From contig NC_057765.1 of NCBI RefSeq assembly GCF_010389155.1, positions 4,588,001 to 4,652,000 of the forward strand: a stretch of DNA of 64,000 nt. The letters are read 5' to 3'. This DNA comes from Erigeron canadensis (lineage: Eukaryota; Streptophyta; Magnoliopsida; Asterales; Asteraceae). Below are positions 2,465 through 63,600 of the stretch, piece by piece; the first letter of the stretch is position 1, and every line of letters begins with the position of its first letter. Made by a program: the position numbers and the translations under genes. The notes beneath the pieces are model-generated. The model made no database searches and was not told where the DNA came from. It worked only from the letters and a program-made list of their open reading frames with translations.

Positions 2465-3824
2465 ATAGAACATATTATTGGATATATATTAGTTATTATT
2501 TTATTGGATAAATATTAGCTATTATTCTATCGGATATAAATTAGATATTATTATTTATTTATTATATCGAAATTATTGGGTAAAAAGTGTAAATTTGTGA
2601 TGGAAAACAAAAAAGTGTAAATTAAAGTCAAAATTGAAATCAAAAGTCAACATTAAGAAATTGAGAGATATGATTGGTCGATAAGTTATTAGAGCAACTG
2701 TGTTTTAGTATAATAAAAGATTAGTTTTTTTAACCCATATTTTTTAATTTAAATTTAACGTATATTTGTTTTTTTCTTCGTTATTAATATAATTAATAAT
2801 GTGTATATAATTAATAATTATTATTTTTAACTTGTTACTTTTAATATAAATTTAACGTATATTTATTTTCTCTCCGTTAATAATATAATTAATAATTATA
2901 GAATTTTTTTATTAATTTATAATTTTTGTTTTTCATCATTAATTTTCAATTTTTGTTTTAGTCTTTCACAAAACAAAAAAATCTTTAGATACTTAATTTA
3001 AACATAATTAATATATTTTGTAGCTTTCAAATTGAGCAATTACTTTTTAAAATTTTTCACAATTTAATTAACTAAAGTTTGTTCAACATATTAATAATAA
3101 CTCTTTTTTTTCTTTCATAAAACATTAAAACAATATTTGTTAACTTACATTTGGAAGTAGTTTATAAATTACATTTGACATGAGGATCATCTAATTATAA
3201 TTAAACCCTCATTAATATATTATTATATTGGTCAATTTATTCTTATTAATATATTATTATACTGATCTATTATTCTTTGAAGTTAAAATTTCTAATTTAC
3301 ATATCAAAATAATATTATTTAATAGTAATCGTATTATTTTTTATATAAACTTAAAATATATCTATAATTAAGTTATCATATTTTAAATCAATAATTTCAA
3401 ATTACATATATAGACATCTAATTTTAAAATTTTAATTTAACCACAACCTAATAACTATGTGTTAATTTATTCCCTAAGTTATATCTATAAATATGAAAAA
3501 TAAGAAAAAAAAAAAAAGTTCAAAATTATAAAAAAATCATGAACGGAAAGAAAAAAAATATACATAATGATCAAATCGTACATCGAACGCCTATTAATAC
3601 TAGTATTAATTACATAAAATATACATTAAATTTCCAATATATTCTATAACAAATTATGTAAAAAATTATATTAATTTACATATTTTGCGGATTTAGTATC
3701 TCATTTAATATTCATCATGCGTATATAAATATATCTAAGCTTTCACTATCCTCTATCTATATATATATCAAGACCTATAATAATAATACTAATATTCATC
3801 TCTTTCTCCTTGATAGATTTAAAA
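716..3824. other. Intergenic AT-rich DNA upstream of the first LTP-like gene
   Basis: No coding sequence is supported here. It contains the MITE at 807-1043, a short hairpin-forming motif near 1880-1897 (GTGTCCAACATTGGACAC, a perfect stem) of the kind found in dispersed repeats, and a (TA)n run near 2430-2461. The last ~100 bases before 3825 hold TATA-like sequence (3753-3768) and a pyrimidine-rich leader, probably the promoter of the next gene. Confidence 0.6.
807..1043. mobile_element. MITE, family M1 copy 1
   Basis: Ends are inverted repeats: the left half contains GGACTATCCACTATATTACTG and the right half its exact reverse complement. The centre contains GACGCCCGTCAGGTCAGGTGTC, which matches in style the centre of the two elements at 4338 and 5220 (GACGGCCGTCAG). 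It has no coding capacity and is a short non-autonomous DNA element. Confidence 0.75.
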
Positions 3825-4127
3825 ATGAAGGGTTTTGGTGTTTATGTTGTGATGGTCATAATAACATTGATGCTAATAGGTATAGCATATTCTCAACCAA
3901 TTACCAACTGCACCACCACTGATCTTATACCTTGTGGTCCTGCCTTGATTCATCCTGAAAAACCAATAGACCCAAAATGTTGTGATGTTTTAAAGAAACA
4001 AAAAGATCGTTTTTGTATTGATTATAACCAACGTAAAAGTTATTTCTGTTTTTACCAGTTCAACTTTGGTACTTTTCAAGACGTTGTTCGGAATTGTGGA
4101 ATTGTTTGGACGGAAACATGTAGCTAA
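3825..4127 (+). CDS. Secreted cysteine-rich lipid-transfer-like protein, copy 1
   Basis: A 100-residue single-exon protein. Residues 1-23 form a hydrophobic signal peptide ending AYSQ, so the product should be secreted. The mature part follows the order of a plant nsLTP/prolamin 8-cysteine domain: C, C in PCGPAL, the CC pair in KCCDVLKKQ, then C, C, and two late cysteines (NCGI, ETC). The family binds lipids or acts as small apoplastic proteins. The usual CxC pair is broken: compared with the paralogue at 8557, one cysteine of each of two CxC pairs is missing, leaving 8 instead of 10. The start at 3825 was chosen because both paralogues begin at the same place after TTTAAAA; an in-frame TTG at 3810 is not a credible plant start. 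A TATA-like run lies ~60-70 bases upstream. Substrate unknown. Confidence 0.8.
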   Translation: MKGFGVYVVMVIITLMLIGIAYSQPITNCTTTDLIPCGPALIHPEKPIDPKCCDVLKKQKDRFCIDYNQRKSYFCFYQFNFGTFQDVVRNCGIVWTETCS

Positions 4128-8556: not shown

Positions 8557-8871
8557 ATGAAGTTTTTTGGTGGTTTTTTCGTGATGGCCGTCATGGTAAC
8601 AATGCTAATAGATATAGCATATTCTCAAAAGTGCACCTTTTTTGATGATGTTAAAACTACTTGTGGTCCTGCCTTGGTAAATCCCGTAGGACCAATATTC
8701 TGGAAATGTTGCAATGCGTTAAAACAACATATAGAATGTGTTTGTGATGATGAGGTACTCGGATTTACGAGTTGTTTTTGTTTTTACGACCGAAATTTTA
8801 TTACTTTCCGTGATGTTGTTAAAGGTTGTGGAATCGATTGGAATAATAATGCATGTAAGCCCATTGTGTAA
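8557..8871 (+). CDS. Secreted cysteine-rich lipid-transfer-like protein, copy 2
   Basis: A 104-residue single-exon paralogue of the gene at 3825. The signal peptide (about 1-23, ending AYSQ) and the CGPAL block are conserved between the two. The mature chain has ten cysteines: two single, the CC pair in KCCNAL, a CVC pair, an extra CFC pair, and two late ones (GCGI and ACKP). This fits the nsLTP/prolamin 8-cysteine scaffold with one added CxC. The gene lies in the same orientation 4.4 kb after its paralogue, pointing to local duplication. The ATG follows TTTAAAA exactly as in copy 1. Likely apoplastic; the ligand cannot be told from sequence. Confidence 0.82.
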   Translation: MKFFGGFFVMAVMVTMLIDIAYSQKCTFFDDVKTTCGPALVNPVGPIFWKCCNALKQHIECVCDDEVLGFTSCFCFYDRNFITFRDVVKGCGIDWNNNACKPIV

Positions 8872-11792: not shown

Positions 11793-12371
11793 ATGTCACA
11801 TCCAGACTCGACTTCCCCACCACCAAAGTTGTCAAAGCCGCCCACACTTCATAAACACAAGTCTTTGTCCACGGACTTTTATCGTGAAGAGACATGGCTT
11901 AGACGAAAACACAACCACCAGCACCAGAGCCGACATCAGCTCCATAGACGAAGCAAGAGCCTAATAACAAGTGAAGACATCGACGAGCTCAAAGGGTGCG
12001 TTGATCTCGGATTCCATTTCACCTCTGAACCAAACAAGCTCTCCAAGACTTTTCCGGCACTTGATCTTTATTACGCTACATCATCATTGCCACCATCAAG
12101 TTCAAACTCATCGACTACTACATCTAATTGTGGCGACTCACCGCCAGAACCTTGTAGCCCCCACATTGCCTCCACGGCAGCCACCTTATTCAGTTCAGGT
12201 GAGTTATTTGATTAAAACTTTTGTATAAACAAATGTGGTTGATATATTTTATGGAAATTAATTGTAGGGGAGAATCCAAAGATGGTGAAAAGAAGATTGA
12301 AGCAATGGGCACAAGTTGTTGCTTGTGCAGCACGTCAACCAGCATGTTGCCAAGAAGACACCAAGGAATGA
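11793..12371 (+). CDS. DUF1685 family protein
   Basis: Two exons, 11793-12198 and 12268-12371, join to a 169-residue protein. The 69-bp intron has a clean GTGAGT donor and TTGTAG acceptor and splits a glycine codon. The N-terminal third is rich in Ser, Pro, His and Arg. The DUF1685 core follows: EDIDELKGCVDLGF at about residues 61-74, then FPALDLYYA. Exon 2 gives the family's C-terminal block, KMVKRRLKQWAQVVACAAR, ending QEDTKE. DUF1685 proteins are plant-specific and of unknown molecular function. The open frame runs past the donor for only a few codons, so the intron is needed to obtain the conserved tail. A TATA box is at 11610. Confidence 0.9.
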
Positions 12372-32560: not shown

Positions 32561-35500
32561 TTAGCAGGGTTCAACAACTAGTAACTCTGCGAAATTCCCT
32601 AATTCCCTGACTTGGAGAACCACTGCTATAGGATCCATTTGTCCGATGATAGTCAGTATCCAAATTTGCACATCATAGTCTATCGATTCAACGCCTGAAA
32701 TAGTAGATATTGCCCTCAACACCTTCTTTTTTTGACTGTCAGTACCGAAGATCACCCTCAGCACAATTTTCTGAAATACAGACAAAAAACTGTTTGCATA
32801 GGTATACACACATCCACAAAAGAACAAGGTGATGATTCCATCTGACAACTATAAACTTAAAATTATAATGAATGGTAATTTACTAATTTGATGAAATTGA
32901 TTGGCATGAGGCTAACTGATGCAAAAACGTAGAGTATTTACAATGTTACATACCACTTTGTTGAGGGTGCCTCTGCCTCTAAATGTACTCAGCTCCGTGA
33001 ATGATACAGCCAAGTCATGTGACTGGCGACATTTTTTCCATCCTTGCAATTCTGTATGATATTAGCAATAATTAGAAACTATCACTACTTGTAGGCTTAA
33101 CTAGAAACAGCTCAAAGAGAAGCTTACTTTTAAAATTAACAGTACCACCAACTAAAAATGTTAACCAATCAGGGCTCATTGACTTGAGAAGATCACGCCG
33201 GCAAAGATAGTACACCCCTTTGGTCAGCTCAAATTGGGATAGATCTCCTCCAATCACTTCTTCTCCTTTTGCAATTTTTTCTGAATCTTTTTCTCCCGTG
33301 AATTCACAATCCACATACACAAGGCCGGCACTGCACCTGCTTACGATCAAATTATTCCCCACAACGATAGACACTTGTACTTCATCACCAGGCTCTAATA
33401 AGTTTCCAATTGGCCAATAGCTCAACCACAATGCATCTCTATCAGTTCTGGCTTTGCAAAAGACAACAGGGTTGTATATCCAAGTAAGACCCTTATTTAT
33501 GTTGCTAACTTTGGCAAACAAAACACACTCATCTTGATCTTCATTCTCAAGTAGTGAATAGTATCCACAATACACATTTAATCCTTGGATCTTAGGACAG
33601 AAAGGCACTTGGAAGGATAAGAAGGGGGATGCTGACGTATACTCTGGCATTATGATTTGATTGATTTCATCTTCTTCTTGCCATAGATATGTGCTCATTA
33701 TACCATATTCGTACAACATCTACGCCACAAAAGTTGTGCATATGTTATTCTTAATTACTTGGATCAAGGGAGGTAATGCATTTTAGAGAAAGAGAGAGAG
33801 AACCTGAATATGTTCCTGTCGACCTTTGATAATCTCATCACCGACCAGCTCTACCGTATGATCTTGAAAGGCCCTGATCCAATTCATATGTCCGAGCTCT
33901 GCTTCACCAATATTTTTTATAAAAACTAATTTGAACAGTCCTTGAATTTCACAAAGCTCAATACAGCGACTATATCCAAATTCCCGCAGTTTGAAATGTG
34001 CTGATTGGAATGTTATTTTTTTAAGTGATTCACAAGAATGTGTATACAACTCTTCTAGAGTTCTTGGAAGATATAAAAGGGACTTGAGACAGCGACAAGA
34101 CGTCAAGTTGAGTACCCGGAGCATCTTAAGATCAATGTTGTTGGGCAGGAAGTTAAATAGATTATTGCCTAAATTTATGTAGAAGAATGGTTGGCCACTA
34201 AAAACCACATGAAAATTATTAAGTTTCTCTAGGTCAACGTTATTGAGAAACAAAAACTGTAAAGAGTGTGGTAAGATAAACGACTGTTGCTCTGTAACCT
34301 TCAACAGATTCTTACACCCTGTCAAGTCCAATAAAGCAAGACGCTCAAGGCCTGCAATGGTTTTACTAATATGAGTTAGACTGGTACAATCCCAGAGGAT
34401 CAAAGTCTCCAGATTTGGCACACGATTGAGATTGCGGATACTGGCAAGATACAAACAGTTTCTAAAATTAAGAGTCTTGAGCGAATTAAGAACCTATTCC
34501 AAGAATAAAAAACTTAATTAAACATTTTATATTTATTTAAGCGAAGACATTTTTAATATTGAAAATTAAAAGATCAAGTAAAAGCAGACAATTGATTTCC
34601 TACCTCTGGTATTTCAAACTCTTCTAACTTTCCATAACTCAAATCGATGGCCACCAAGCTACCCATCAATAAGTCAGAAGGTATCGTTTTCAAATGACAT
34701 GCGTGCCAGCACAACCAAGTCAATTCTGGAAAACTCTTGTAGGATCCGGTGAGTTCCACATATTTGAGTTGGAGGAACTTTAGCTTGTCCATGTTTGCAA
34801 ACGAATCTGTTTGAAGGGCCTGTCGTTACAATTTTATGTGCATTTTGTGAAAAGATTTACAAGATCTACTAAGATAATCTTAATAACTATTGTTATAAAT
34901 AATACACAATGATTTACTTCCTTGGGCTTACCTCTGATGCCATCCCTTGATCAATGTTTCGCATGTCAAGTGCTAGACCTTCAATTGTTTGGGAACCCTG
35001 ATTGAGAGACAGCACAGTGACAGAAACTTGTAGAAATTAGAGGTTATCAAAATAAAAGCACGCTTAAGGATGCACATAAGAAGCACCTTACCTCTCCTTT
35101 AACCAACACGTGATAAGAATCGTCTTGACAGACTCTACTACGTTTTGCTGGATCTTTTGACTCTTCTTTTACGATCGTTCTGCCCATCTCTTGAAGCAGT
35201 TGATGCATCATCAGTTTCTTACTAGGTGAGATGGTTAGAAGGCATCTGTCATTGAGTACATTGATCCCAGCCCGTGCATGCCAGTCATGTTCCAGAATTT
35301 GTACCACATCATCCTCATATTCGCCAACAAAGAAAAAAGCAATATGCAGGAACAGTTCCCTGTCTCTGAAATGTGGCAAGGAGTCATAGCTCGTTTTTAG
35401 TATACCTAAAATGTTGTTATGAAGATCTCCCTTAGATGATTTTATAAACCTTATTCTACTTATCCAGTGGTTTCTTGATCTTTCCACATCTCCAGCACTA

Positions 35501-38500
35501 ACAGTCAAAGAAGAACCGAGTACTTTGAGAGCTAGTGGGTTTCCTGCACAATACTGTGCTAACTGCACTGCAAGATCCTTGAATTCTTCCAAAGGAACTG
35601 TGGATCCAAAGGCATGAAAACTTAAAAGCTCTAATGATTCATGATCATTTAGCAACTTAAGTTTGTACACCTTGCACTTGCAGGATATGGATCCAAACCA
35701 TGTTCGTATATCGAGACTTCTAGTAGTTATTATGATCTTGATTTTTGTATGCAAAGTCTTTGTTCCAACTAGAGCCCCTATTTGGTCTTTGTCATCAATG
35801 TCATCAAGAACAATAAGTACCTTCTTCACTTGCATGGCATCCTCAATCTTTCTTGTGAGCTCAGGACGACTAAAACTTGTATCATTTTTGAGCCCTGAAA
35901 TGTCTGCAAGCAGTTGTTTCTGTAGCCCAAGTAAACCATTAGGTTGTTTGTTGTGCTTCCCGATTTCCATAAGGAAACTGCTGCTTTCAAAGTTCAGCTT
36001 GTTAGAGTTATAAATGTATTGGGCCAGCGTTGTTTTACCGATGCCTCCCATGCCACAAATCGCTAGAGCTTCAGCACTAGGTCGGTCAGTTCTCAACCAG
36101 AAATTGATATGTTTAGCTCGAGTTTCCATTCCAGTTAAATGGGCTGGGGTACTTAGTTGTTTCAAATCTAGCTTATCGTGAACTGTACGGATAATATCTT
36201 GGATAAGCTTTGTTTCGGACCTAGAACAAAGTACAATGAGCACTATAAGAGCAATAAATGTAAACTTCATATGAGATCAACTACTTATGTTATAGTACAT
36301 TACACTACAAGAGAATATATAATTTCATTTTCATTTATTTTTAACACAAAAAAAGTTAAACTTTCGGAGACTACATTGCCGTCTCCAAATGTTTTTCAGA
36401 AATTATTTGACTTTTTTTTTGTTGCCTAAGTGAAAAAATTTTCCCTCCAAACCTTTGGAGACGACAATCCCCAAAATATTTTTTTTTGCTTCCCACCAAA
36501 TGGAATAAATTTTCCGCCAAACATTTGGAGACGACATTGTCGTCTCTAAAAATATTTCCCGAAAATTTTTTCATTTTTCCTTTCCCTCCATATTAAAAAC
36601 GATTCCCTCCAAACTTTTGGAAATGACATTGTCGCCAATATTTGTGATGAATCATATTGATGTTAATGCTTGTATTTTTCTTTCAATGATGTATTAAATG
36701 GAAACATTCATGCTTGTTTTAACCGTGTGATGATTCTTTCAAACATTGATGCTTGTTTTGGGTGTATGTCCATAAACGTGTATTTTTTCTACAGATGGCA
36801 GGATTGGCACATATGTCACAGGGAGGAGATTGCGGCAGCAATCCTCCGAATGGTGGTGGTTTCACAACTACCAGTTGCATGCCAGGCGAGCGGTATGACA
36901 AATTATTCTATATTTATATACATACTTTTATACTTATACAATTTTACTTTTTATGGTTAACCTATCTAGATGGCACGGGTTCATAAAGTTTAGGACATGC
37001 ATCAGATGCATTTTAGTCACGCTCGCGTGCCAACAAAGATTGTCGTGTTAAGCAAAAAATCATTGTACGCCATGGTCGAAATAACATGGCTCATATAAGA
37101 TTCAAGAATGTAAATTTTATCTTTGAAGTATGGTTGTAACATAGACCCGTATGAAAAACTAACTATATTAACTTTATATTAATTTCATGTGTTTATAGTG
37201 GGCATCACCAATTGCCAAGTAATTAGTTATGCATAATGTATCAACAAACATATACATTCCCATAGAACATATAACATTCCCCACACTCCCCTAATTACTA
37301 TTGTGTTGTAACTATGCAGAACAAAGAAGCATGTCAGCTTGATTGATTTTGACAGTGTGACGGAAGTTCTTGGAGACCGTTGTGGTTGGTGTCTTAGAAT
37401 AGGCCAAAAGTTGCCCAAATCTGGATATATATCTTCGTTAAGTGATGAGCAATAATTATATAGACTTTTACCGCACTAGCTTTGGCCATTTTATAGTCTT
37501 TTGAGTGAACTTATGATACTTAATGGCACATATATGTGATTCCAGGTTCATTGCTCGTGGCATGAAGGAAAACGTCAAGAAATGGTGATAAAGGACTAAA
37601 AGGAAGATAAATGATGGTTCGATGAAGATTCGGGTCGAGATTCAAGACTTAAGATGAAGGAACTTGTGTTAACATGAAGCCTATGACCACGTGTTAGTAT
37701 TTTGGGCATAACTTCTTCATACGGACTCCGTTCGGACGAGTAAGCTATCTACGGAAAGGCAAGAGAAAGATCTACAACTTTCGTGTTGAACCTGAAGCCT
37801 CCAGCGCCGCTCATTTTTCTCTAGCGCCGCTGGAAGTCATCATGAAGCTCACCAGCGCCGCTGGGTACATCACCAGCGCCGCTGGAGTGATCCTGAAGCA
37901 TACCAGCGCCGCTGGAACCTCATGAGCGCCGCTCCCACTCCACCAGCGCCGCTGGGACTTCTGCCTGCGCCGCTCCCAAGGTTAGTTCAGCTAGGGTTTA
38001 TCCGAAAACCTATAAATACCCCTCTAATACCCTAGGGCCGTAACACACACATTCCAGTCGACTTTGGAGCTGCTTTTAAGGTATTTTCATCAGATCAAAA
38101 CCATTGCAACACCCCCATAACACCCACATCATCCATAATCATTCATAATCATTCCAACCATCATTCCACTCATGCATCAATGATTTTCTCAATCAACCAT
38201 TGAAGATTTGAAGATGGAGATGTCCGGCTAAACCTCTCGTTATCTCTCCCGGTGAATGATTCTTGTTTAACTATGTTTAACAAACTCTTTATTTATTTGT
38301 ATGAACATTGATTCTTTGTTGGTGATTTATGCAAGTACTGAATATTTGTTCATTTAAGTTGTTATTGGCTTATCTTAAGACAGTCTATTGCGAGTCAACA
38401 ATTTGTGCCGAGTCCAACTAGATTAGAGATTAAGACAAGTTGTGTGGTAAACATAGGTTGTGCCCAAAATAGTTCATTTCAACTTAACAAATTATGTCTA

Positions 38501-40012
38501 TCTGATTTGGAACAAATAATTCATAGGGTTTGTTGAACTAGTTATTTCAAGGATCTAGGAGCCGGGAGGGATGCACCTTTTTATAATTGTCTAGATATTT
38601 TATTTTTATTATTGCTATGCTCGAATATTATAAGTCTAGTGAACTAATTTCCATTGTCATTTTCTTTAATCAAATTTAGTTTTAATATCATCTTTAAAAT
38701 CAATCGTGACTGTACAACCTGACTATAACCACAGACGCTCCTCGTGGGAACGATATCCACTTACCCTATCTAGTATAAGGTGTTTAGGTTTATTTTTGAT
38801 AGGTACTTCGACGTCGGTCATCAAGCTCCCCGACCACTAAGAAGACATACACGCAAGCACAAGTTGACGAGATGTTGGCAAAGGTGAGTGCCGAAGTGAG
38901 TTCTGAAATTGGACCAGTATATAAAGCTCCAAGTAATGTAGGTATCCAGATTCCTCCTCGTGTGGACGAGGAGTTAGACCGGGTTGAGAATGAGGAGGAG
39001 GAGGAGTAGGGTGAGGACATGGACGAGGGAGAGGGCGACAACCACTGAGAGGATGAGGATGATTTTTAGTGATGGTATTAGATTATGAAACGTTTAACTT
39101 CTTAATTAGAACTACTTGTTATAACTTGCATATTTGGTTGATGATATTTTTAAGCTTTTGTTGATATATTAGGATGATTTTCATGTATTAGTTTATGACA
39201 CGTTGCCAACACCACCGCCGCCGCCACTGCCGCGCCGCTACCTCCATCATCGCCGTATTGCATGGGCATATAACTAATTGTTAGTAAAATCGACATGATG
39301 ATAAATCATGACATAGCTTTCCAAAACTTTAAAAATACTGGATTGTATCATTGAAACTTTTTAATATAAATATATTTTGAACCATCTTGTACGTGATCCG
39401 TATCCGAATTTTTAGAAGTGGTTTACAGGTCAAACCAGGACTTTAGTGAAGTCAATATAGTATGACTTTGGTTCCAAAGACGGTGATTCGACCCCAGCCT
39501 GTAATTAATGATAAAGGAATTGACGAGATAAAAACATACCCCGAAACAGTCATGCCAGTCAGATTCGCAACTTCTCTTAGAGCCGACTTCCAGCAGTTCA
39601 CATCATTCATATCTCTGTGCTCATATTCTATGGCAAAACTGTGACTTTGTTTCCTGACATGTGAAGGAATCACATGATAAAACACTGGCAAAACGAAATG
39701 ATTGGAGTTCCTTCTTTGCTCAAGGATCAACACAAGCTCCTCAAGACACCATCTCGAATTCGCATAGTTTTCCGACAGCACAATGATAGAAGATCTAGAT
39801 TCGAGTATTGCTTTCTTGATTTCTGGCTCAAGTGGTTGACCTCTGTCTATTGCATCATTGTCTCTGAAAGTGCGAAGTCCTGCTCGCAAAAATGCATCGT
39901 ATAGATGATCAGTAAAAGCATGACGAGTATCTTCTCCTCTGAAGCTCAGAAACACATCATACTTGTGATGAGTAATATTCAGCACAGAAGATGAAGAAGA
40001 TGTACACGCCAT
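32561..40012 (-). CDS. TNL immune receptor with C-JID and integrated C-terminal HMA domain
   Basis: Eight exons: 39540-40012, 35092-36220, 34932-34997, 34604-34819, 33804-34493, 33128-33719, 32954-33051 and 32561-32770. They total 3474 bases, giving 1157 residues with consistent phases and no stop. TIR (about 17-157): YDVFLSFRGEDTR and SRWCLEEL, keeping the glutamates at 91-92 near the NADase site. NB-ARC (158-534): P-loop GMGGIGKTT (214-222), kinase-2 VLIVLDDID, IIITTRS, GNPLALKVLGSSL; the MHD motif reads MHQ (496-498). LRRs fill exons 4-5 (557-858). Exon 6 is a C-JID (FQVPFC, GLTWIYNPV, LEPGDEVQVSIVV). Exons 7-8 add an HMA fold (KIVLRVIF, GVESIDYDV, MDPIAVVLQVRELG) lacking CxxC. TNLs sense effectors in the cell and signal through TIR NADase activity. 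Intron 1 (3.3 kb) holds a CACTA element and an LTR. Confidence 0.93.
36303..39010 (+). mobile_element. CACTA (En/Spm-like) transposon, degraded, in TNL intron 1
   Basis: The left end reads CACTACAAGAGAATATA, the standard CACTA terminus. Subterminal repeats with GGAGACGACA and its inverse TGTCGTCTC occur four or more times between 36365 and 36640. Downstream are exon-like pieces of a Transposase_24-type gene: ~36795-36893 (starts MAGLAHMSQGGD), ~37319-37455 (acceptor TATGCAG; KKHVSLIDFDSVTEVLG) and ~38782-39009 (TKKTYTQAQVDEML, ending in an acidic EEEEE tail and a stop). A matching right terminus CTTGTAGTG was not found, so the element seems truncated. It lies antisense to the host TNL. Confidence 0.65.
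37550..38795 (+). mobile_element. LTR-like segment with GCGCCGCT repeats, nested in the CACTA element
   Basis: The segment interrupts the transposase pieces. It has a (C)CAGCGCCGCTGG motif repeated about nine times at 37798-37976, then a TATA box TATAAATA at 38011-38018 followed by an ACACACA transcript-start-like site, then a long AT-rich part ending GTGGGAACGATATCCACTTA. A promoter-bearing non-coding unit of this kind fits an LTR (U3-R-U5) of a gypsy-type element. Exact ends and a target duplication were not found. Confidence 0.4.
39195..39285 (+). mobile_element. Helitron-like terminus (family H)
   Basis: CACCACCGCCGCCGCCACTG followed by a terminus CGCCGTATTGCATGGGCATA. Same arrangement as the copies at 7740, 41928 and 57250; located in TNL intron 1 just before the TIR exon. 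Confidence 0.35.
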
Positions 40013-40319: not shown

Positions 40320-40878
40320 TAGGGACAAAAATGTTAATTGGGCAAATTATATTTAAAAATATTACACATGTCCAAAATAGCTTTCTGGGGTTTTAATATA
40401 AAACACTAGATGGATGCGCGTTCAACGCACCGGAGAGGATGGTAATGGTGATGGTGGTAGCGGTGGTGTGGCGGTGGCTGATAATGGCGACAACAATAAA
40501 ACGAGTAAGTGACTTAGGTGTTGTTTGGGCAGTCGCAAACTTTATTTTCAGTGTGATTGTTTGCTTCATAAAAGATAGGTTCAAAATGTGTTTTAGTGCA
40601 CCAGACTTTCCAAAACAGGCATCTACAATGCTCAAAACTATCACAAGTATGATGAATATATAGAAACCTAGGCATGTTTTTTTGGTTTATGCCCCTCTTT
40701 TCCCCTGATCTGAGTAACTAAATGGGTCATCGACTCAGTGGGTTTATATATCTAAACTAGCCAATAAGGATATTGAAATCAAATTGGTCAAATGGATCAA
40801 ATGTGGCCCCCAATTTGTTTTGGTGAGATTTGCGTTCCCAGCGTATAACCCCCACATGGGGCCCTCAAAGATTTTCAT

Positions 40879-41400
40879 GTCAGTTAGTGAGATTCTTTGG
40901 GTGCGGTGGCTGCCCAAAGATTTCGCAGTCAACTTAGATAAAGCTACTCCTCTTTATTGTGACAATGAAGCTGCCCGACACATTGCCAACAACCTAGTTT
41001 TTCACGAGCGAACCAAACACTTTCAAATGGATTGTTATTTTGTCCGAGAAAGGGTTGACTCTCAAGAGGTCTTGCCAATACATGTCTCCAGCAATCAACA
41101 AGTTGCATTACTAAGCCCTTGGGAGCACAAGTTTATGTGATTTGCTTAACAAGCTGGGTGTTAAGAATCTTGGGGGGGGGGGGGGAGTAAAGGAATTATT
41201 GTGTTTCCTAGTTTACTTCCTATATTATGTCCTAGTTTATCTCTTTTGTAGCTTTGGCTTCAAGAAACTTCAGCTATATATGTTTGTATATGTCGATTCA
41301 TATGAAACAGAACAACAATTCAAAAACCAAAAAGTCAGAAACCTAAATCATTATTTTCATCATCACTCTAGGAGGCAGCCATGGAAGAAGTAGCATTCGC
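40879..41400 (+). pseudogene. Ty1-copia RNase H and 3' end fragment
   Basis: The frame from ~40879 encodes a decayed copia RNase H end: SVSEILWVRWLPKDF, then ATPLYCDNEAARHIANN, HERTKHFQMDCYFVRERV and PIHVSSNQQVA. It is followed by a stop, a remnant of the usual KLGV tail, a polypurine tract (G-run at 41173-41185) and ~200 bases of probable 3' LTR. Gag, integrase and reverse transcriptase are absent, so this is a truncated insertion. Confidence 0.8.
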
Positions 41401-54767: not shown

Positions 54768-57085
54768 TTAGCAGGGTTGAACAGCTAGTAACTCTGTATA
54801 ACTCTTAGATTTCTTGACTTGGACCATCACTGCTACAGGATCCATTTGTCCGATGATAGTCAGTATCCACTTTTGCACATCATAGTCTATCGATTCAACG
54901 CCTGAAATAGTAGATATTGCCCTCAACAGCTTCCCTTTTCGACTTTCACTCTGGAAGATTACCCTTAGCACAATTTTCTGAAATACAGACAAAAACTGTT
55001 TTCATAAAGGTACACACAATAGAACCAATAACTCTGAGAAATAAATTTACCCCGTATCATTTCCATATTTTTATAACAATGAAAACAAGAACAAAGTAAA
55101 AGAGAAATCCCAAAACCCATTACAATAATGATTTCCTCTACAGCTATAAACTAAAATAATAATGAATGGTAATTTGATGAAATAGATTGTCATGAGGGTG
55201 ACTCATTAGAAACATATTGAGTGTATACATACTTTGTTGAGGGTGCCTCTAAATGTTTTCAGTTGAACTGATGCATCCAAGTGCTGTGAATGGCGACACT
55301 TTCTCCATCTTTGCAATTCTGACAATGTATGATATCAGGACCTATCACTATTTGGCTAAATCTCAACTAAAAGCATTCAGAAATAGGTCAAAGAGAAACT
55401 TACGCTTATAACGATTGGTACCACCAACTAACATTTCTAAATAATCAGGGATCTTTGATTTGAGATCATGGCGGCAAAGGTAGTATACCCCTTCGGTCAG
55501 CTCAAATTCTGATAGATCTCCTCCAATCACTTCTTCCTCTTTTGCATTGTTTTCCGACTCGTTCTCTTCTGTGAATTCACAATCCTTATACACAAGGCTG
55601 GCCCCACACCTACTTACAATCAAACCATTCCCCACAATGATAGACACTTCTACTTCATCACCAGGCTCTAACATGTTTCCAATTGGCCAATAGCTTAACC
55701 ATAGAGCATCTCTATCAGTTCTGGGTTTGCAAAAGACAACAGGGTTGTATATCCAAGTAAGACCCGTAGTTTTGTTGCTAACTTTCGCAAATAAAACACA
55801 CTCATCTTGATCTTTATCCTCTAGTACATAGTATGCCGAATTCACATCTAATCCTTGGATCTTGAGTTCGTCAGGACAAAAAGGCACTTGGAAGGATAAG
55901 AAATTGGATTTTGATATATACTCGGACATCAGGATTTCATCTTCTTCTTGCCATAGATATGTGCTCTTTATACCATATTCGTACAACATCTATGCCACAA
56001 AATTGTGGATGAAAGTTAGTTATTCTTCATATGTTACTCAGTTCAAGGGATGTATGTAGATGCATTTTAGAAAAGAGAGAGAACCTGGATATAATGTGGT
56101 CGGCCTTTGGTAATCTCATCACCCACTAGCTCTACTGTATGATCTTGAAAAGCTTTGATCCAATTTATATGTCCAAGCTCTGCTTCATCAATATCTTTTA
56201 TAAAAACCAATTTGAATAGTCCTTGAATTTCACAAAGCTTGAAACAACTACTATATCCAAATTCCCGCAGTCTGAATCGAGCTGATTGGAAAGTTATTTT
56301 TTCAAGTGATTCACATGAATATGTATACAACTCTTCTAGAGTATTTGGAAGATATAGAAGAGACTTGAGGCGGTGACAAGACGTCAGGTCGAGTACCCGG
56401 AGCATCTTAAGATCAATGTTACTGGGGAGGATCTTGAATAGATTTTTGCCCAAATTTAGGTAAAAGAAAGGATGGCCACTAAAAACCGCTCGAAAATCAT
56501 CAAGTTTCTTTAGGTCAAAGTTATTGAGAAACAAAAACTGCAAAGAGTGCGGTAAGGTAGAAGAAACCTTCAACAGATTCTTACACCCTGTCAAGTCCAA
56601 TAAAGCAAGACGCTCAAGGCCTGAAATGGTTTCACATACATGAGTCAGACTGATACAATCCCATAGGATCAAAGTCTCGAGTTTTGGCGTTCGATTAAGA
56701 TTGTGTATATTGATAAGATACCAACAGCCTTTAAAATTGAGAGTCTTGAGCGAATTAAGAACCTATTCCAAGAATAAAAAACTTAATTAAACATTCTATA
56801 TTCAAATGAAGACTCTTCTAATATTGAAATTTTAGAAGATCAAGTAACAGCAGAGAGTTTAATTCCTACTGTTGGCACTTCAAACTCTTCTAACTTTCCG
56901 TATCTCATATCTATGACCACCAAGCTGCTCATCGATAAGTCAGAAGGTATCACTTTCAAATGACATTCACGCCAGCACAACCAAGTCAGTTCTGGAAAAT
57001 TTTTGTAGGATCCTGTGAGTTCCACATGTTTGAGTTGGAGCAACTTTAGCTTCTCCATCTTTGCTAACGAATCTGCTTGAAGGGC
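54768..57085 (-). pseudogene. 5'-truncated TNL paralogue: LRR, C-JID and HMA only
   Basis: Five exons correspond one-to-one to exons 4-8 of the TNL at 32561: 56870-57085, 56085-56762, 55404-55989, 55233-55318 and 54768-54977. All frames are open (592 codons) and internal splice sites are kept. LRRs (LKLLQLKHVELTGSY, LPHSLQFLFLNNFDL), C-JID (GLTWIYNPVVFCKPRTD, LEPGDEVEVSIIVG) and HMA (KIVLRVIFQSESRKGK, GVESIDYDV) are all present. No TIR or NB-ARC sequence occurs in the next 3 kb upstream. At the first retained exon the acceptor CAG of the full gene (ACAG|GCCC) is CGG here. The first in-frame ATG is at 57058. It is either a pseudogene or a truncated LRR-HMA protein; lack of a recognisable promoter favours pseudogene. 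Confidence 0.85.
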
Positions 57086-58544: not shown

Positions 58545-59304
58545 AATAAAGAACACAAGGATTTTACGTGGTATCTCATACCATGTGTGTGAGGTAATCC
58601 ATGGCTACAACTAGGGTTTTTTTTTTTTTTTTTTGTTAAGCTCAGTAATAATGTATAGGAGACTAGCTAAAGTTTATTCCTTGGTGACCAAGGAAACCAA
58701 GTGGGCATCCTAAACAATTAATTAATACGGGCCCAAAGACCAACAAGCCCCTTAAAGACTTCAAACCTAATAGTTACTCCTACATCTTCATGTTAGCGAA
58801 CTCGGTTATTAGTGTTTGCGTAGAAATTATTTTCAGAACACATTAATCCTAAGATAAGCTCAATAGGGTTTCCATTCTAAAACTATATGGTGATAGTGGG
58901 ATTAGCCCACAGTCTTATATGCATGCTAGAGTTTGTTTTTCTTCTAATGTGGGATATGGGTTAACACCCAACAATTCTCCCCTCAAACCCAAATTCTGTA
59001 ATTGGGCCTCCTTTTCAACTATAGCCTATGCTCCACCTTTTTCATACCGTCGACATTTACTATCTAAACACACTGCCTTTTACCGGCTTCCTTTCAATAC
59101 AGGCATACGATGATCTACTAATACCGTTGAATCAAGGGTCTAGCAGGAGAACCATCCACATCAACACTTAGTAGAACCTGACTCTAATACCAATTGTAAG
59201 AATTATATTCCTAACTCATTAAGCCGATATAAGGTCAATGGGGTTCCACTCTAAAACCATATGGTGATAGAGGGAGTAGCCCACAACCTTATATACATGC
59301 TTTG

Positions 59305-59306
<2 letters not shown>

Positions 59307-59384
<78 letters not shown>

Positions 59385-59403
59385 AGTATTATCATCATCA
59401 TCA

Positions 59404-59451
<48 letters not shown>
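59307..59451. repeat. Long ATT/ATC microsatellite
   Basis: About 145 bases of TTA/ATT triplets, interrupted by CAGTATT and a short TCA/ATC run (59391-59406). Confidence 0.95.
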
Positions 59452-59452
<1 letters not shown>

Positions 59453-60359
59453 GTGGGATATGAGTTTACACCCAATGGTTTGTGGCCTCTATTATTGGAT
59501 GAGTGTTGATAGAGAGACCTACTAAATAGGCCTACTAAGAGACCTAACCAACATATCTTGCTTTCATTCCAAAAATACAATCTTATATAATTTTCTTTCA
59601 ATAAAACCCTCCATAAAATACACACTAATATACTATTCTTTTTTTTTAATCTCTTATGACTTCTTTTTGACGGCAATATCTCTTTTATATCTTTTCAACA
59701 AATGACAAACGTGATACTTATTTGAGAGCCATATCGATCTCTTTTATATCTCCTCCGATCTGCTACCCACCGCCACATTCAACCCCATAACACCAATGAA
59801 CCATCCATCTCCTCCATGTCCCGACTATCTTCCACCAATGAATGTTGAAATGGGAAGAAAAAAAAGTTTACCTTACATTTCGTTATGTCGTCACAAATTT
59901 CGTTCGTTTAATCACACACCCTCCGTATATGTGGCCAAACTTTACTGTTTCTTTTGAGAAGAAATGTTGGAATTGATCAAAGTAGAAGATTTTTCTTTGA
60001 GAGGGGATCAAAGAAACAGTGCAGAGATGATGGTAAAAAAAGAGACAAAAATTAACCAAAATTTTAGATGATGATCAACGAAACAGTGGTAGAGAATTTT
60101 TTTGACGGAAATCATTATTGCGTATTTCCGTATTTACTTTAACTATAAATCAAGGGTATAATAGGGATAACGTAAAATATTTAATAGACTTGACAAATGT
60201 CATTTATTTAGTGGTTAGGTCAAATTTTAGGTTTTATATTTAGGTCTCCTAATCATTTTTGTTATTGGATAGGCACCATGGTGACGTGTTTTCAATGCAT
60301 CTCATATGCATTATTTGATCTTCAGGATTTCATTAAAACCTTACAACATCCCATATTCA

Positions 60360-60692: not shown

Positions 60693-63600
60693 ATGGCGGA
60701 GGAAGCTCTTTCAGTCTCATACCAGAGTGTGCCTCGGTTTGATGGAGACTACGATCACTGGAAGTTGGTTATGGAGACACTTCTCAGATCAAAGGAATTC
60801 TGGTGTGTGATCGAGGAGGAGATCAAGGAACCCAGAACAGGAGAAACTATGACTGCGGCACAGAAGGCCCAATATGATGCATTGAAGTTGAAAGATCTGA
60901 AGGCTCGAAACTACTTGTTTCAATCTATTGACAAGCAGATTCTTCGAACTATTCCTTAGAAAGATAGTGCTAAGCAGATTTGGGATGCTATGAAGATCAA
61001 ATACCAAGGAAATGCACGTGTGAAGAGAGCTCAACTCCAACGATTAAGGAAAGAGTTTGAAACCCGGGAGATGAAGGAAGGAGAAAGTATAGCCGACTAC
61101 TTCAATAGAGTCATAACTGTGACCAATGACATGCAGAATTATGGAGAAAAGATGACTGATGTGAAGATTGTGGAGAAAATCCTGAGATCTTTAACTGAAA
61201 CCTACAACTATGTAGTGTGTTCAATTGAAGAATCAAACGATATTGATAGCATGACCGTGGATGAACTGCAAAGTTCACTCCTGGTACATGCGCAAAAGTT
61301 CAAAAAGAAGCAGCCCTTTGAAGATCAAGTGTTGAAAGTTGAAAATGATGGTCGAGGAAGAGGCAAAGGCAGAAGTCAATTTAGCAGAGGAAGAGGCAGA
61401 GGTAGGGGCAGAGCCCGAGGAAACTTTGACAAATCAAACATAGAGTGCTATAGGTGTCATGGCATGGGTCATTTCTCATATGAATGTCAAAAGGATGACA
61501 ATCCAGTGAATTATGCTGAATTTGATGAAGGAGAAGACCTTCTACTCATGGCCATGACAGAAGAAAAGAAAGATGAAGAGACTAAAGGAATTTGGTTCTT
61601 AGACTCTGCCTGTTCAAACCATATGACGGGCACAAAAGGCTCGTTCATCAACTTAGATGAAAGGTACACTCATTCGGTCAAACTTGGGAATGACATAAGG
61701 CTATCTGTGAAGGGGATAGGCGATATTAGACTTGAGGTGGAAGGAATCACTCAAGTTATAACCAGGGTTTACTATGTACCAGAACTTACTTCTAACCTTC
61801 TAAGTATGGGTCAGTTACAAGAAAAGGATTTGACCATAGTCATCAAGCAAGGGAAATGTAAAGTACACCACCCTATTAAAGGAGTGATTGTGAGTTCAAC
61901 TATGACCAGAAATCGCATGTTTCTGATTCATGGTGTGATGAAGCCTCTACCAAGTCAATGTCTCAAAGTGAGTGATGTGGAAAACAAACAAGTATGGCAT
62001 AGGAGGCTGGGGCACTGCAATTTCAAGTCTGTACGAGCAATGCAATATCGGCAGCTAGTCAAGGGGTTGCCTAAGATGGCTGAAAACACTCATGTGTGTG
62101 AAGTCTGCAAGCTAGGCAAACAGCAGAGAGAGCCAATACCAAGGAAGAGTCTATGGAGAGCAAATGAAAGATTGCAACTGATACATACAGACTTATGTGG
62201 TCCAATTTCTCCCGCTTCTCCCAGTGGAAAAAGGTACCTTTTGTCTTTTATAGATGATTACACTAGAAAAGGGTGGGCATATTTTCTAGCCAATAAATCT
62301 GAAAGCTTTGGAATGTTTAAGAAATTCAAGGCCATGGTAGAAAATGAAACAGGTCTTACTATAAAGGGGTTAAGAAGTGATAGGGGTGGTGAATTCACTT
62401 CAAATGAATTTAACTCATTTTGCGAACAGCACGGGATTAGAAGGCAGTTGACCACTGCATTTACACCGCATTAGAATGGTGTAGCTGAACGTAGGAACAA
62501 GACCATTATGAATGCAGTTAGGTGTTTTTTGATTGAAAAAGCTCTGCCAAAGTGGTTGTGGTCCGAAGCAGCAAAATGGGTGGTTGTGGTCCGAAGCAGC
62601 AAAATGGGCCACTCATGTCCTCAATAGATGCATCACAAGTGCACTTGAGGATAAGGTTCCTGAGGAGGCATGGTCAGGAACGACACTCAACGTTGATTAT
62701 TTCAAGGTGTTTGGGAGTATAGCCTTTGCCACTATACTTTCACAACTCAGGAAGAAACTAGACGATAAGAGTGTGAAGTGTATATTCTTGGGCATAAGTA
62801 CTCGATCAAAAGCATACAGGCTGTATGACCCAATTCAAAACGAGATCATATTTAGCAAGCATGTTAGTTTTGATGATAATGGAAGGTTTTAGCAAGCATG
62901 TTAGTTTTGATGATAATGGAAGGTGGGAATGGAACAAAGAAGAATTTGGCAGCTCAGATCTGATCCTACCAGATGAATACGTGCATGTAGAAGAGGATGA
63001 ATACGTGCATGTAGAAGAAGCAGCAGCAGCTAGAACAGATCATATAAAACAATCAATGATGAACTCAAGCACTCCAGTTGAGCCACAACAGGGAAGTGCC
63101 TCAACTGAGAACATACAAGCAGCTCAGGAACTAGCTCCAACAACAATTGAAAGTTCAACTACTGGGGCAAGAAGAGTATCATCCAGGGCGACCAAGACTC
63201 CTAGCTGGTTTGAGAATTACATGACTGGGGAAGGGTGTTTGGATGAGTATCTAGATGAAGAGGCCAATCTGGCCTTGTTCAGTTCTGCAGGAGATCCCAT
63301 CAATTATGCAGAGGCAGCAAATAATCCCAAATGGATTCAAGCCATGGAGACAGAGATTAAGGCCATTGAAAGCAATGATAAGTGGAAACTAGTGGAAGCA
63401 CCTAAAGATAGTATTCCTATTGGAGTGAAGTGGTTGTATAAGACAAAATACAATGAGAAAGGGGAAATTGACAAGTTTAAGGCCAGACTCGTTGTTAAGG
63501 GCTATGCTCAGAAAAAGGGAATAGATTATGAGGAAGTATTTGCGCCTGTGGCAAGGTGGGATACAATCAGAACTCTGTTAGCTGTTGCAACATATAATAA

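What the first reader, a model, noticed from the sequence alone, without database searches (positions are those of the whole stretch)
32561..36220. TNL receptor with an integrated C-terminal HMA domain after the C-JID
Seen: an eight-exon frame closes without error and its last exon encodes an HMA-like beta-alpha-beta-beta-alpha-beta pattern (KIVLRVIF, LRAISTISGVESIDYDV, MDPIAVVLQVRELG, AELLVVEP). The CxxC loop is replaced by FGTDSQKK. Known: HMA domains lacking metal binding are integrated decoys in the rice CC-type receptors Pik-1 and RGA5. I know of no characterised TIR-type receptor with the HMA placed after the C-JID. Inference: the HMA may bait effectors that target HMA/HIPP host proteins.
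Basis: partly seen in the sequence, partly recalled or inferred. Interest (0 to 1): 0.9.

Follow-up and report, generated by a model that had tools for sequence, protein, structure and literature searches.

The report
Immune receptor with bait-like HMA domain
A TIR-type immune receptor gene of horseweed (daisy family) ends in a small HMA domain of the kind that cereal receptors use as bait for pathogen proteins, and related daisy-family receptors often carry the same fusion, mostly without a domain label.

Summary
On the minus strand an eight-exon gene (40012 to 32561; the finding's interval omits the TIR exon 40012-39540) encodes a 1157-residue TIR / NB-ARC / LRR / C-JID-like / HMA protein, identical to a public Erigeron canadensis model. 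The last exon is a genuine HMA: below Pfam's cut-off, but clear by sequence (integrated HMA of Rmo2, E 5e-9), by a profile of free-standing relatives, and by a confident fold (pLDDT 92) that overlays RGA5, Pik-1 and OsHPP09 HMAs. A 5'-incomplete second copy about 15 kb away keeps the HMA exon in frame; between the copies Ka/Ks is 1.7 in the HMA exon and 0.34-0.54 in LRR and C-JID-like exons (suggestive, not significantly above 1). It is no one-off: 55 of 121 related proteins, all legible names Asteraceae, carry an HMA after the same domain; 6 of the 55 bear the Pfam HMA label. Some relatives hold kinase, PP2C, Exo70, ROH1-like or calmodulin-binding domains there instead. The missing CxxC is shared with the free-standing relatives, so it is no sign of decoy adaptation. 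'C-JID' has no sequence support here. Effector baiting is the likeliest function but untested.

The parts
39540..40012 (-). copy 1 exon 1: start codon and TIR domain
   Evidence: Pfam TIR 1.5e-42
36221..39539 (-). copy 1 intron 1 (3.3 kb)
   Evidence: GT-AG
35092..36220 (-). copy 1 exon 2: NB-ARC and ROQ1-type winged helix
   Evidence: Pfam 2.9e-31 and 3.1e-12
34932..34997 (-). copy 1 exon 3 (short)
34604..34819 (-). copy 1 exon 4: LRR
33804..34493 (-). copy 1 exon 5: LRR
33128..33719 (-). copy 1 exon 6: C-JID-like domain
   Evidence: beta-rich in the model; no Pfam C-JID match
32954..33051 (-). copy 1 exon 7: linker, predicted disordered
   Evidence: pLDDT under 50 at residues 1055-1086
32561..32770 (-). 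copy 1 exon 8: HMA domain and stop codon
56870..57085 (-). copy 2 LRR exon; the base pair before it reads GG where copy 1 has the AG acceptor
56085..56762 (-). copy 2 LRR exon
55404..55989 (-). copy 2 C-JID-like exon
55233..55318 (-). copy 2 linker exon
54768..54977 (-). copy 2 HMA exon and stop codon, in frame
   Evidence: Pfam HMA 19.2 bits, below cut-off

Best explanation
The gene is a TIR-type NLR receptor with an HMA domain, related to free-standing HIPP39-like proteins, fused by its own exon to the C terminus after a C-JID-like domain and a flexible tether of about 30 residues. Most likely it works as integrated bait: an effector that targets HIPP/HPP proteins binds the HMA (alone or with LRR and C-JID-like domain), the NB-ARC is released, and the TIRs assemble into a resistosome that signals as in other TNLs. 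Shown: the fusion in sequence, the identity of the HMA, its spread in Asteraceae, faster divergence of the HMA than of the neighbouring domain. Inferred: effector binding, TIR activity, downstream route.
For: Closed frame identical to a public protein. HMA by sequence, profile and fold. Full TNL core by Pfam with the P-loop and the TIR stretch RWCLEEL located (their meaning is recalled). Disordered linker before the HMA. HMA after the same domain in 55 of 121 relatives. In 753 of 780 pairs of clade A proteins the HMA is less alike than the C-JID-like domain; mean identities 40.6% and 58.6%, against 63.1% among 66 free-standing relatives. Between the two window copies Ka/Ks is 1.70 in the HMA exon, 0.34-0.54 in LRR and C-JID-like exons; the N:S counts differ by Fisher at p 0.019 or 0.038 depending on rounding. 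A review states that HPPs and HIPPs are frequent effector targets and that HMA-like IDs bind effectors in rice (PMC12835825, passages and section 8).
Against: No effector, binding or expression data. Ka/Ks of the HMA is not significantly above 1 (p 0.33-0.48), 75 of 520 windows of 69 codons hold as many nonsynonymous differences, and the ratio owes much to a low Ks (0.10); HMA codons 18-35 are identical between the copies, which gene conversion could also give. Fast divergence may be relaxed constraint. Plain copper-chaperone HMAs overlay as well as receptor HMAs. Characterised HMA receptors of rice work with a partner NLR; tblastn with this receptor and the ORF list showed no partner in the window, but none was sought by other means.
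Confidence: 0.6

Rival explanations
1. The HMA is an old structural or regulatory tail of this receptor group (folding, self-association, control of autoactivity or location) and does not bind effectors; its fast change is relaxed constraint after leaving the HIPP role.
For: Found in 55 of 121 relatives across the family, as an old fixed part might be; all receptor HMAs as one clade is not rejected; Ka/Ks not significantly above 1.
Against: Absent in 14 of 15 annotated Lactuca proteins of the same clade and replaced by other domains in relatives, so it is dispensable; HMA Ka (0.17) exceeds Ka of LRR and C-JID-like exons (0.105-0.124).
Confidence: 0.28
2. The HMA exon belongs to a separate gene or is rarely joined to the TNL; the fusion is a gene-model artefact.
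For: No transcript data could be examined here; the public model may itself be a prediction.
Against: Frame and splice sites hold in both copies at the HMA junction; no start codon stands at the head of the HMA exon, which begins KIVLRV; independent annotations in other genera place an HMA at the same place.
Confidence: 0.05
3. The locus is decaying and makes no working receptor.
For: Copy 2 shows no TIR or NB-ARC exon in the 6.9 kb of window upstream, its first exon lacks the AG acceptor, and a copia-type element lies upstream.
Against: Copy 1 is open over 1157 codons with all splice sites canonical and with TIR and NB-ARC motifs in place; Ka/Ks is 0.34-0.54 in LRR and C-JID-like exons between the copies.
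Confidence: 0.07

Closest known systems
RGA5 (rice, CC-NB-LRR-HMA)
   Different: RGA5 is CC-type and works with RGA4; here TIR-type, with a C-JID-like domain between LRR and HMA, no partner seen
Pik-1 (rice, CC-HMA-NB-LRR)
   Different: HMA lies between CC and NB-ARC; CC-type
Integrated HMA of Rmo2 (9tfo; barley by recall)
   Same: best PDB sequence match of this HMA (5.3e-9)
   Different: Only the PDB label was seen; receptor class and place of the HMA were not looked up
HIPP39-like proteins
   Same: Closest free-standing relatives found (79 rows, 26 of them named HIPP39 or HIPP39-like); mostly without CxxC (3 of 79 have it in the loop)
   Different: Free-standing; 72 of 79 end in C-x-x-x, the receptor HMA does not
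RPP1 and ROQ1 (TNLs with C-JID)
   Same: TIR, NB-ARC and ROQ1-type winged helix; beta-rich domain after the LRR
   Different: No sequence match of that domain to C-JID; the RPP1 construct listed ends with the C-JID (chain to 1195), no HMA
Grass major integration clade MIC1
   Same: One receptor lineage with different extra domains at one C-terminal place (passages of PMC5819176)
   Different: MIC1 is CC-type and grass-specific there; here TIR-type and Asteraceae, counted only from database hits

Membership tests
TIR-type NLR (TNL) | TIR, NB-ARC and LRR in this order in one protein | tested here: met
   Pfam TIR 17-181, NB-ARC 199-437, winged helix 443-512; LRR region by model and overlay
C-JID-containing TNL | match to Pfam C-JID (PF20160) after the LRR | tested here: not met
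   no match in the whole protein up to E 1 nor in 0 of 9 members scanned
C-JID-containing TNL | C-JID fold after the LRR | tested here: inconclusive
HMA domain | Pfam PF00403 at the curated cut-off | tested here: not met
   19.0 bits against 24.8
HMA domain | beta-alpha-beta-beta-alpha-beta fold and detectable sequence kinship | tested here: met
HMA domain | metal-binding CxxC | tested here: not met
   0 of 57 receptor HMAs; also 76 of 79 free-standing relatives lack it in the loop
NLR with integrated domain (NLR-ID) | extra domain in the same reading frame as the NLR | tested here: met
   transcripts not examined
Integrated decoy NLR | domain resembles a host protein family that effectors target | tested here: met
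   resembles HIPP39-like proteins; that HIPPs are effector targets is from PMC12835825, not shown for HIPP39 (0 mentions there)
Integrated decoy NLR | effector binds the domain and this triggers immunity | not testable with these tools
   no binding or cell-death data

The most novel reading that the evidence does not exclude
Asteraceae hold an old TIR-type counterpart of the grass integration clade: a receptor lineage whose place after the C-JID-like domain received a HIPP39-type HMA before the subfamilies split, kept and diversified it under pressure from effectors, lost it in most lettuce genes of one clade, and exchanged it in others for kinase, PP2C, Exo70, ROH1-like and other domains; most of it is invisible to surveys that use Pfam cut-offs.
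Probability: 0.5. Interest if true: 0.82.

Novelty: new variant of a known kind. Interest (0 to 1): 0.66.

Why it matters
The characterised NLRs with HMA bait domains that I could find are CC-type grass proteins. A TIR-type group in sunflower, lettuce and their relatives would mean that HIPP-type proteins were copied as bait in another receptor class and would point to HIPP39-like proteins as pathogen targets in Asteraceae. It would also offer many natural HMA variants at a C-terminal, tethered position. Finally, it shows how surveys with Pfam cut-offs can miss such fusions: 6 of 55 carry the label, and 3 more (P0002, P0052, P0054) only in a source's name for the protein.

Tried and rejected
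Lost CxxC as decoy evidence: rejected, only 3 of 79 free-standing relatives have it in the loop. Single freak gene: rejected. Ka/Ks above 1 as proof of positive selection: not claimed; not significant alone, and 75 of 520 contiguous 69-codon windows have as many nonsynonymous differences, although the windows with the highest N:S ratio are those over the HMA. A common EL-x-T-x-R breakpoint motif: seen in 47 of 113 tails of 15 or more residues, mainly clade B and the relatives nearest to this gene; not general. HMA tree: 73 columns, long branches, cannot settle one or several integrations; clade A HMAs as one clade not rejected (p 0.38), all receptor HMAs as one clade not rejected (p 0.83) and 24.7 log-likelihood units better than the free search. 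Iterated HMA profile: one of 2040 shuffled tails reached E 4e-4, so the profile of free-standing relatives was run as a second check; those relatives were themselves found with receptor HMAs. RGA5 or Pik HMAs did not appear in the listed overlays of the full-length model, whose list is filled by TIR and LRR chains. Genome-wide look in the window's own assembly: the genome search gave no answer in five tries. Literature: ten full-text searches; none listed a paper on a TNL with HMA in Asteraceae, and the last, for six spellings such as TNL-HMA, gave 0 papers. That library holds no preprints and few subscription papers. PMC4759884 (passages) lists NLR-HMA fusions in Brassica napus, Capsella rubella, Malus domestica, Medicago truncatula and Triticum urartu, so dicot NLR-HMA fusions have been listed before; their receptor class was not seen. 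PMC5067614 and PMC13390941 were seen as passages only.
Full report
Observation. On the minus strand the exons 40012-39540, 36220-35092, 34997-34932, 34819-34604, 34493-33804, 33719-33128, 33051-32954 and 32770-32561 join, with GT-AG at all seven introns, into one 1157-residue frame with a single terminal stop. A protein search returned a public model, 'disease resistance protein RPV1-like' of Erigeron canadensis (taxid 72917, Asteraceae); the two are identical over all 1157 residues. The finding's interval leaves out the first exon, which carries the TIR.

Second copy. Exons 57085-56870, 56762-56085, 55989-55404, 55318-55233 and 54977-54768 encode a frame 75% identical to copy 1 (454 of 604 aligned columns) that also ends in the HMA. 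Its first exon is preceded by GG where copy 1 has AG; the other splice sites are canonical. No TIR or NB-ARC piece is found upstream in the window and DNA homology starts about 12 bp before that first exon, so copy 2 is truncated, or interrupted with the rest beyond the window. Between the copies Ka/Ks is 0.54 and 0.34 (LRR exons), 0.47 (C-JID-like), 1.28 (linker, 29 codons) and 1.70 (HMA, 69 codons: 24.5 nonsynonymous, 4.5 synonymous differences; Ka 0.172, Ks 0.101). The HMA N:S ratio differs from LRR plus C-JID-like exons (Fisher p 0.019 or 0.038 by rounding) and 57 of 20000 random 69-codon sets are as extreme; but the ratio is not significantly above 1 (p 0.33-0.48), and 75 of 520 contiguous windows hold as many nonsynonymous differences. 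HMA codons 18-35 are identical in both copies.

Relatives. Two searches with the C-terminal part gave 121 distinct proteins (51, 70 more among the 120 listed of 129); all legible names are Asteraceae. An iterated HMA profile finds an HMA after the C-JID-like domain in 55 of the 121 (102 had tails of 40 or more residues); one of 2040 shuffled tails reached E 4e-4. As a second check, a profile made of 66 free-standing relatives alone finds the same 55 at E<0.01 (53 at E<0.001), 0 of 2040 shuffled tails and 0 of 121 C-JID-like regions. Genera with the HMA, as labelled by hand from the listings, are Erigeron, Helianthus, Tagetes, Bidens, Deinandra, Tanacetum, Artemisia, Lactuca, Cichorium, Taraxacum and Arctium, plus two proteins without a legible name and one (P0020) whose genus is guessed. 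Erigeron, Lactuca and Arctium lie in three subfamilies. Of the 55, 6 carry the Pfam HMA label in the source table and 3 more (P0002, P0052, P0054) an HMA-type name. In my own scan of four other relatives, sunflower P0017 shows no HMA match at E 0.05, P0005 stays below the cut-off, P0081 just reaches it (24.9 against 24.8 bits) and P0080 passes.

Tree and other domains. A C-JID-like tree (quick method) of 120 proteins plus copy 2 splits, with SH-aLRT 100, into clade A (65 rows with this gene: 40 HMA including copy 2, 4 a second TIR, 21 none) and clade B (56 rows: 15 with HMA, of which 3 with kinase as well and 1 with two HMAs; 6 kinase, 2 PP2C, 2 Exo70, 1 each ROH1-like, calmodulin-binding, PF23080/PF23197 and a doubtful RPW8; 27 none). 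Six of the proteins with other domains were scanned again: in all six the domain lies after the end of the C-JID-like part. In clade A the HMA starts a median of 24 residues after that end (40 proteins), in clade B 119 (15 proteins). Of the 15 rows of the Lactuca group in clade A one (P0005) has the HMA. 'None' means none in the annotated protein, not in the DNA; the second TIRs may be annotation joins of neighbouring genes.

Origin of the HMA. A search with 14 HMA tails returned 79 small proteins; 26 rows are named HIPP39 or HIPP39-like, one each HIPP12-like and HIPP2-like, and most of the rest are hypothetical, unnamed or cut off in the listing. 3 of 79 have CxxC in the loop; 0 of 57 receptor HMAs have CxxC. 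A tree of 73 columns cannot settle the number of integrations; one clade of all receptor HMAs is not rejected (p 0.83) and scores 24.7 units better than the free search. Clade A HMAs average 40.6% identity (41 rows), the C-JID-like domains of the same proteins 58.6% (40 rows), the 66 free-standing relatives from many plant families 63.1%; the HMA is the less alike in 753 of 780 pairs. For clade B the figures are 38.0% and 75.0%.

Mechanism. The tethered, fast-changing HIPP-type HMA at the end of an otherwise intact TIR receptor is best read as bait for effectors that bind HIPP/HPP proteins. Resistosome formation and downstream signalling are taken from known TNLs (recalled). No partner receptor was seen in the window, but paired action is not excluded. 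The main rival is a structural or regulatory tail under relaxed constraint.

Known or new. A 2025 review (PMC12835825, passages and section 8) tabulates, as examples, HMA-like domains in rice CC-type receptors, barley RPG1 (a kinase) and barley MLA3 (mimicry). PMC12787737 (passages) surveys 305 angiosperm genomes; the passages seen name no TNL-HMA. PMC6115920 on sunflower NBS genes has 0 occurrences of HMA or heavy metal in its main text. PMC4759884 lists HMA fusions in some dicots (passages). A search for six spellings of TNL-HMA found 0 papers. I file this as a new variant of the integrated-domain NLR kind.

Noticed in passing
54768-57085, minus strand: Second, 5'-incomplete copy of the receptor that keeps LRR, C-JID-like, linker and HMA exons in frame.
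   Followed up: yes
60960-62474, plus strand: Copia-type gag-integrase frame upstream of copy 2 (Pfam).
   Followed up: partly
40718-41140, plus strand: Open frame that by eye resembles the end of a copia polyprotein; Pfam gave no match.
   Followed up: partly
36362-36551: Inverted repeat (arms of 54 nt, 74% complementary) in intron 1 of copy 1, near the NB-ARC exon.
   Followed up: no
37780-37970: Several near-repeats of a GCGCCGCT-containing unit in intron 1, seen by eye; possibly part of a transposable element.
   Followed up: no
59269-59488: Long ATT-type microsatellite between copy 2 and the copia frame.
   Followed up: no
3810-4127 and 8557-8871, plus strand: Two similar small cysteine-rich frames with a signal-peptide-like start; no Pfam match.
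   Followed up: partly
11793-12215, plus strand: Frame with a DUF1685 domain (Pfam E 1.8e-17).
   Followed up: no
P0080, P0082, P0098, P0107 (related proteins): Lettuce-type receptor P0080 carries two HMAs in a row after the C-JID-like domain; P0082, P0098 and P0107 carry an HMA followed or joined by a kinase.
   Followed up: partly
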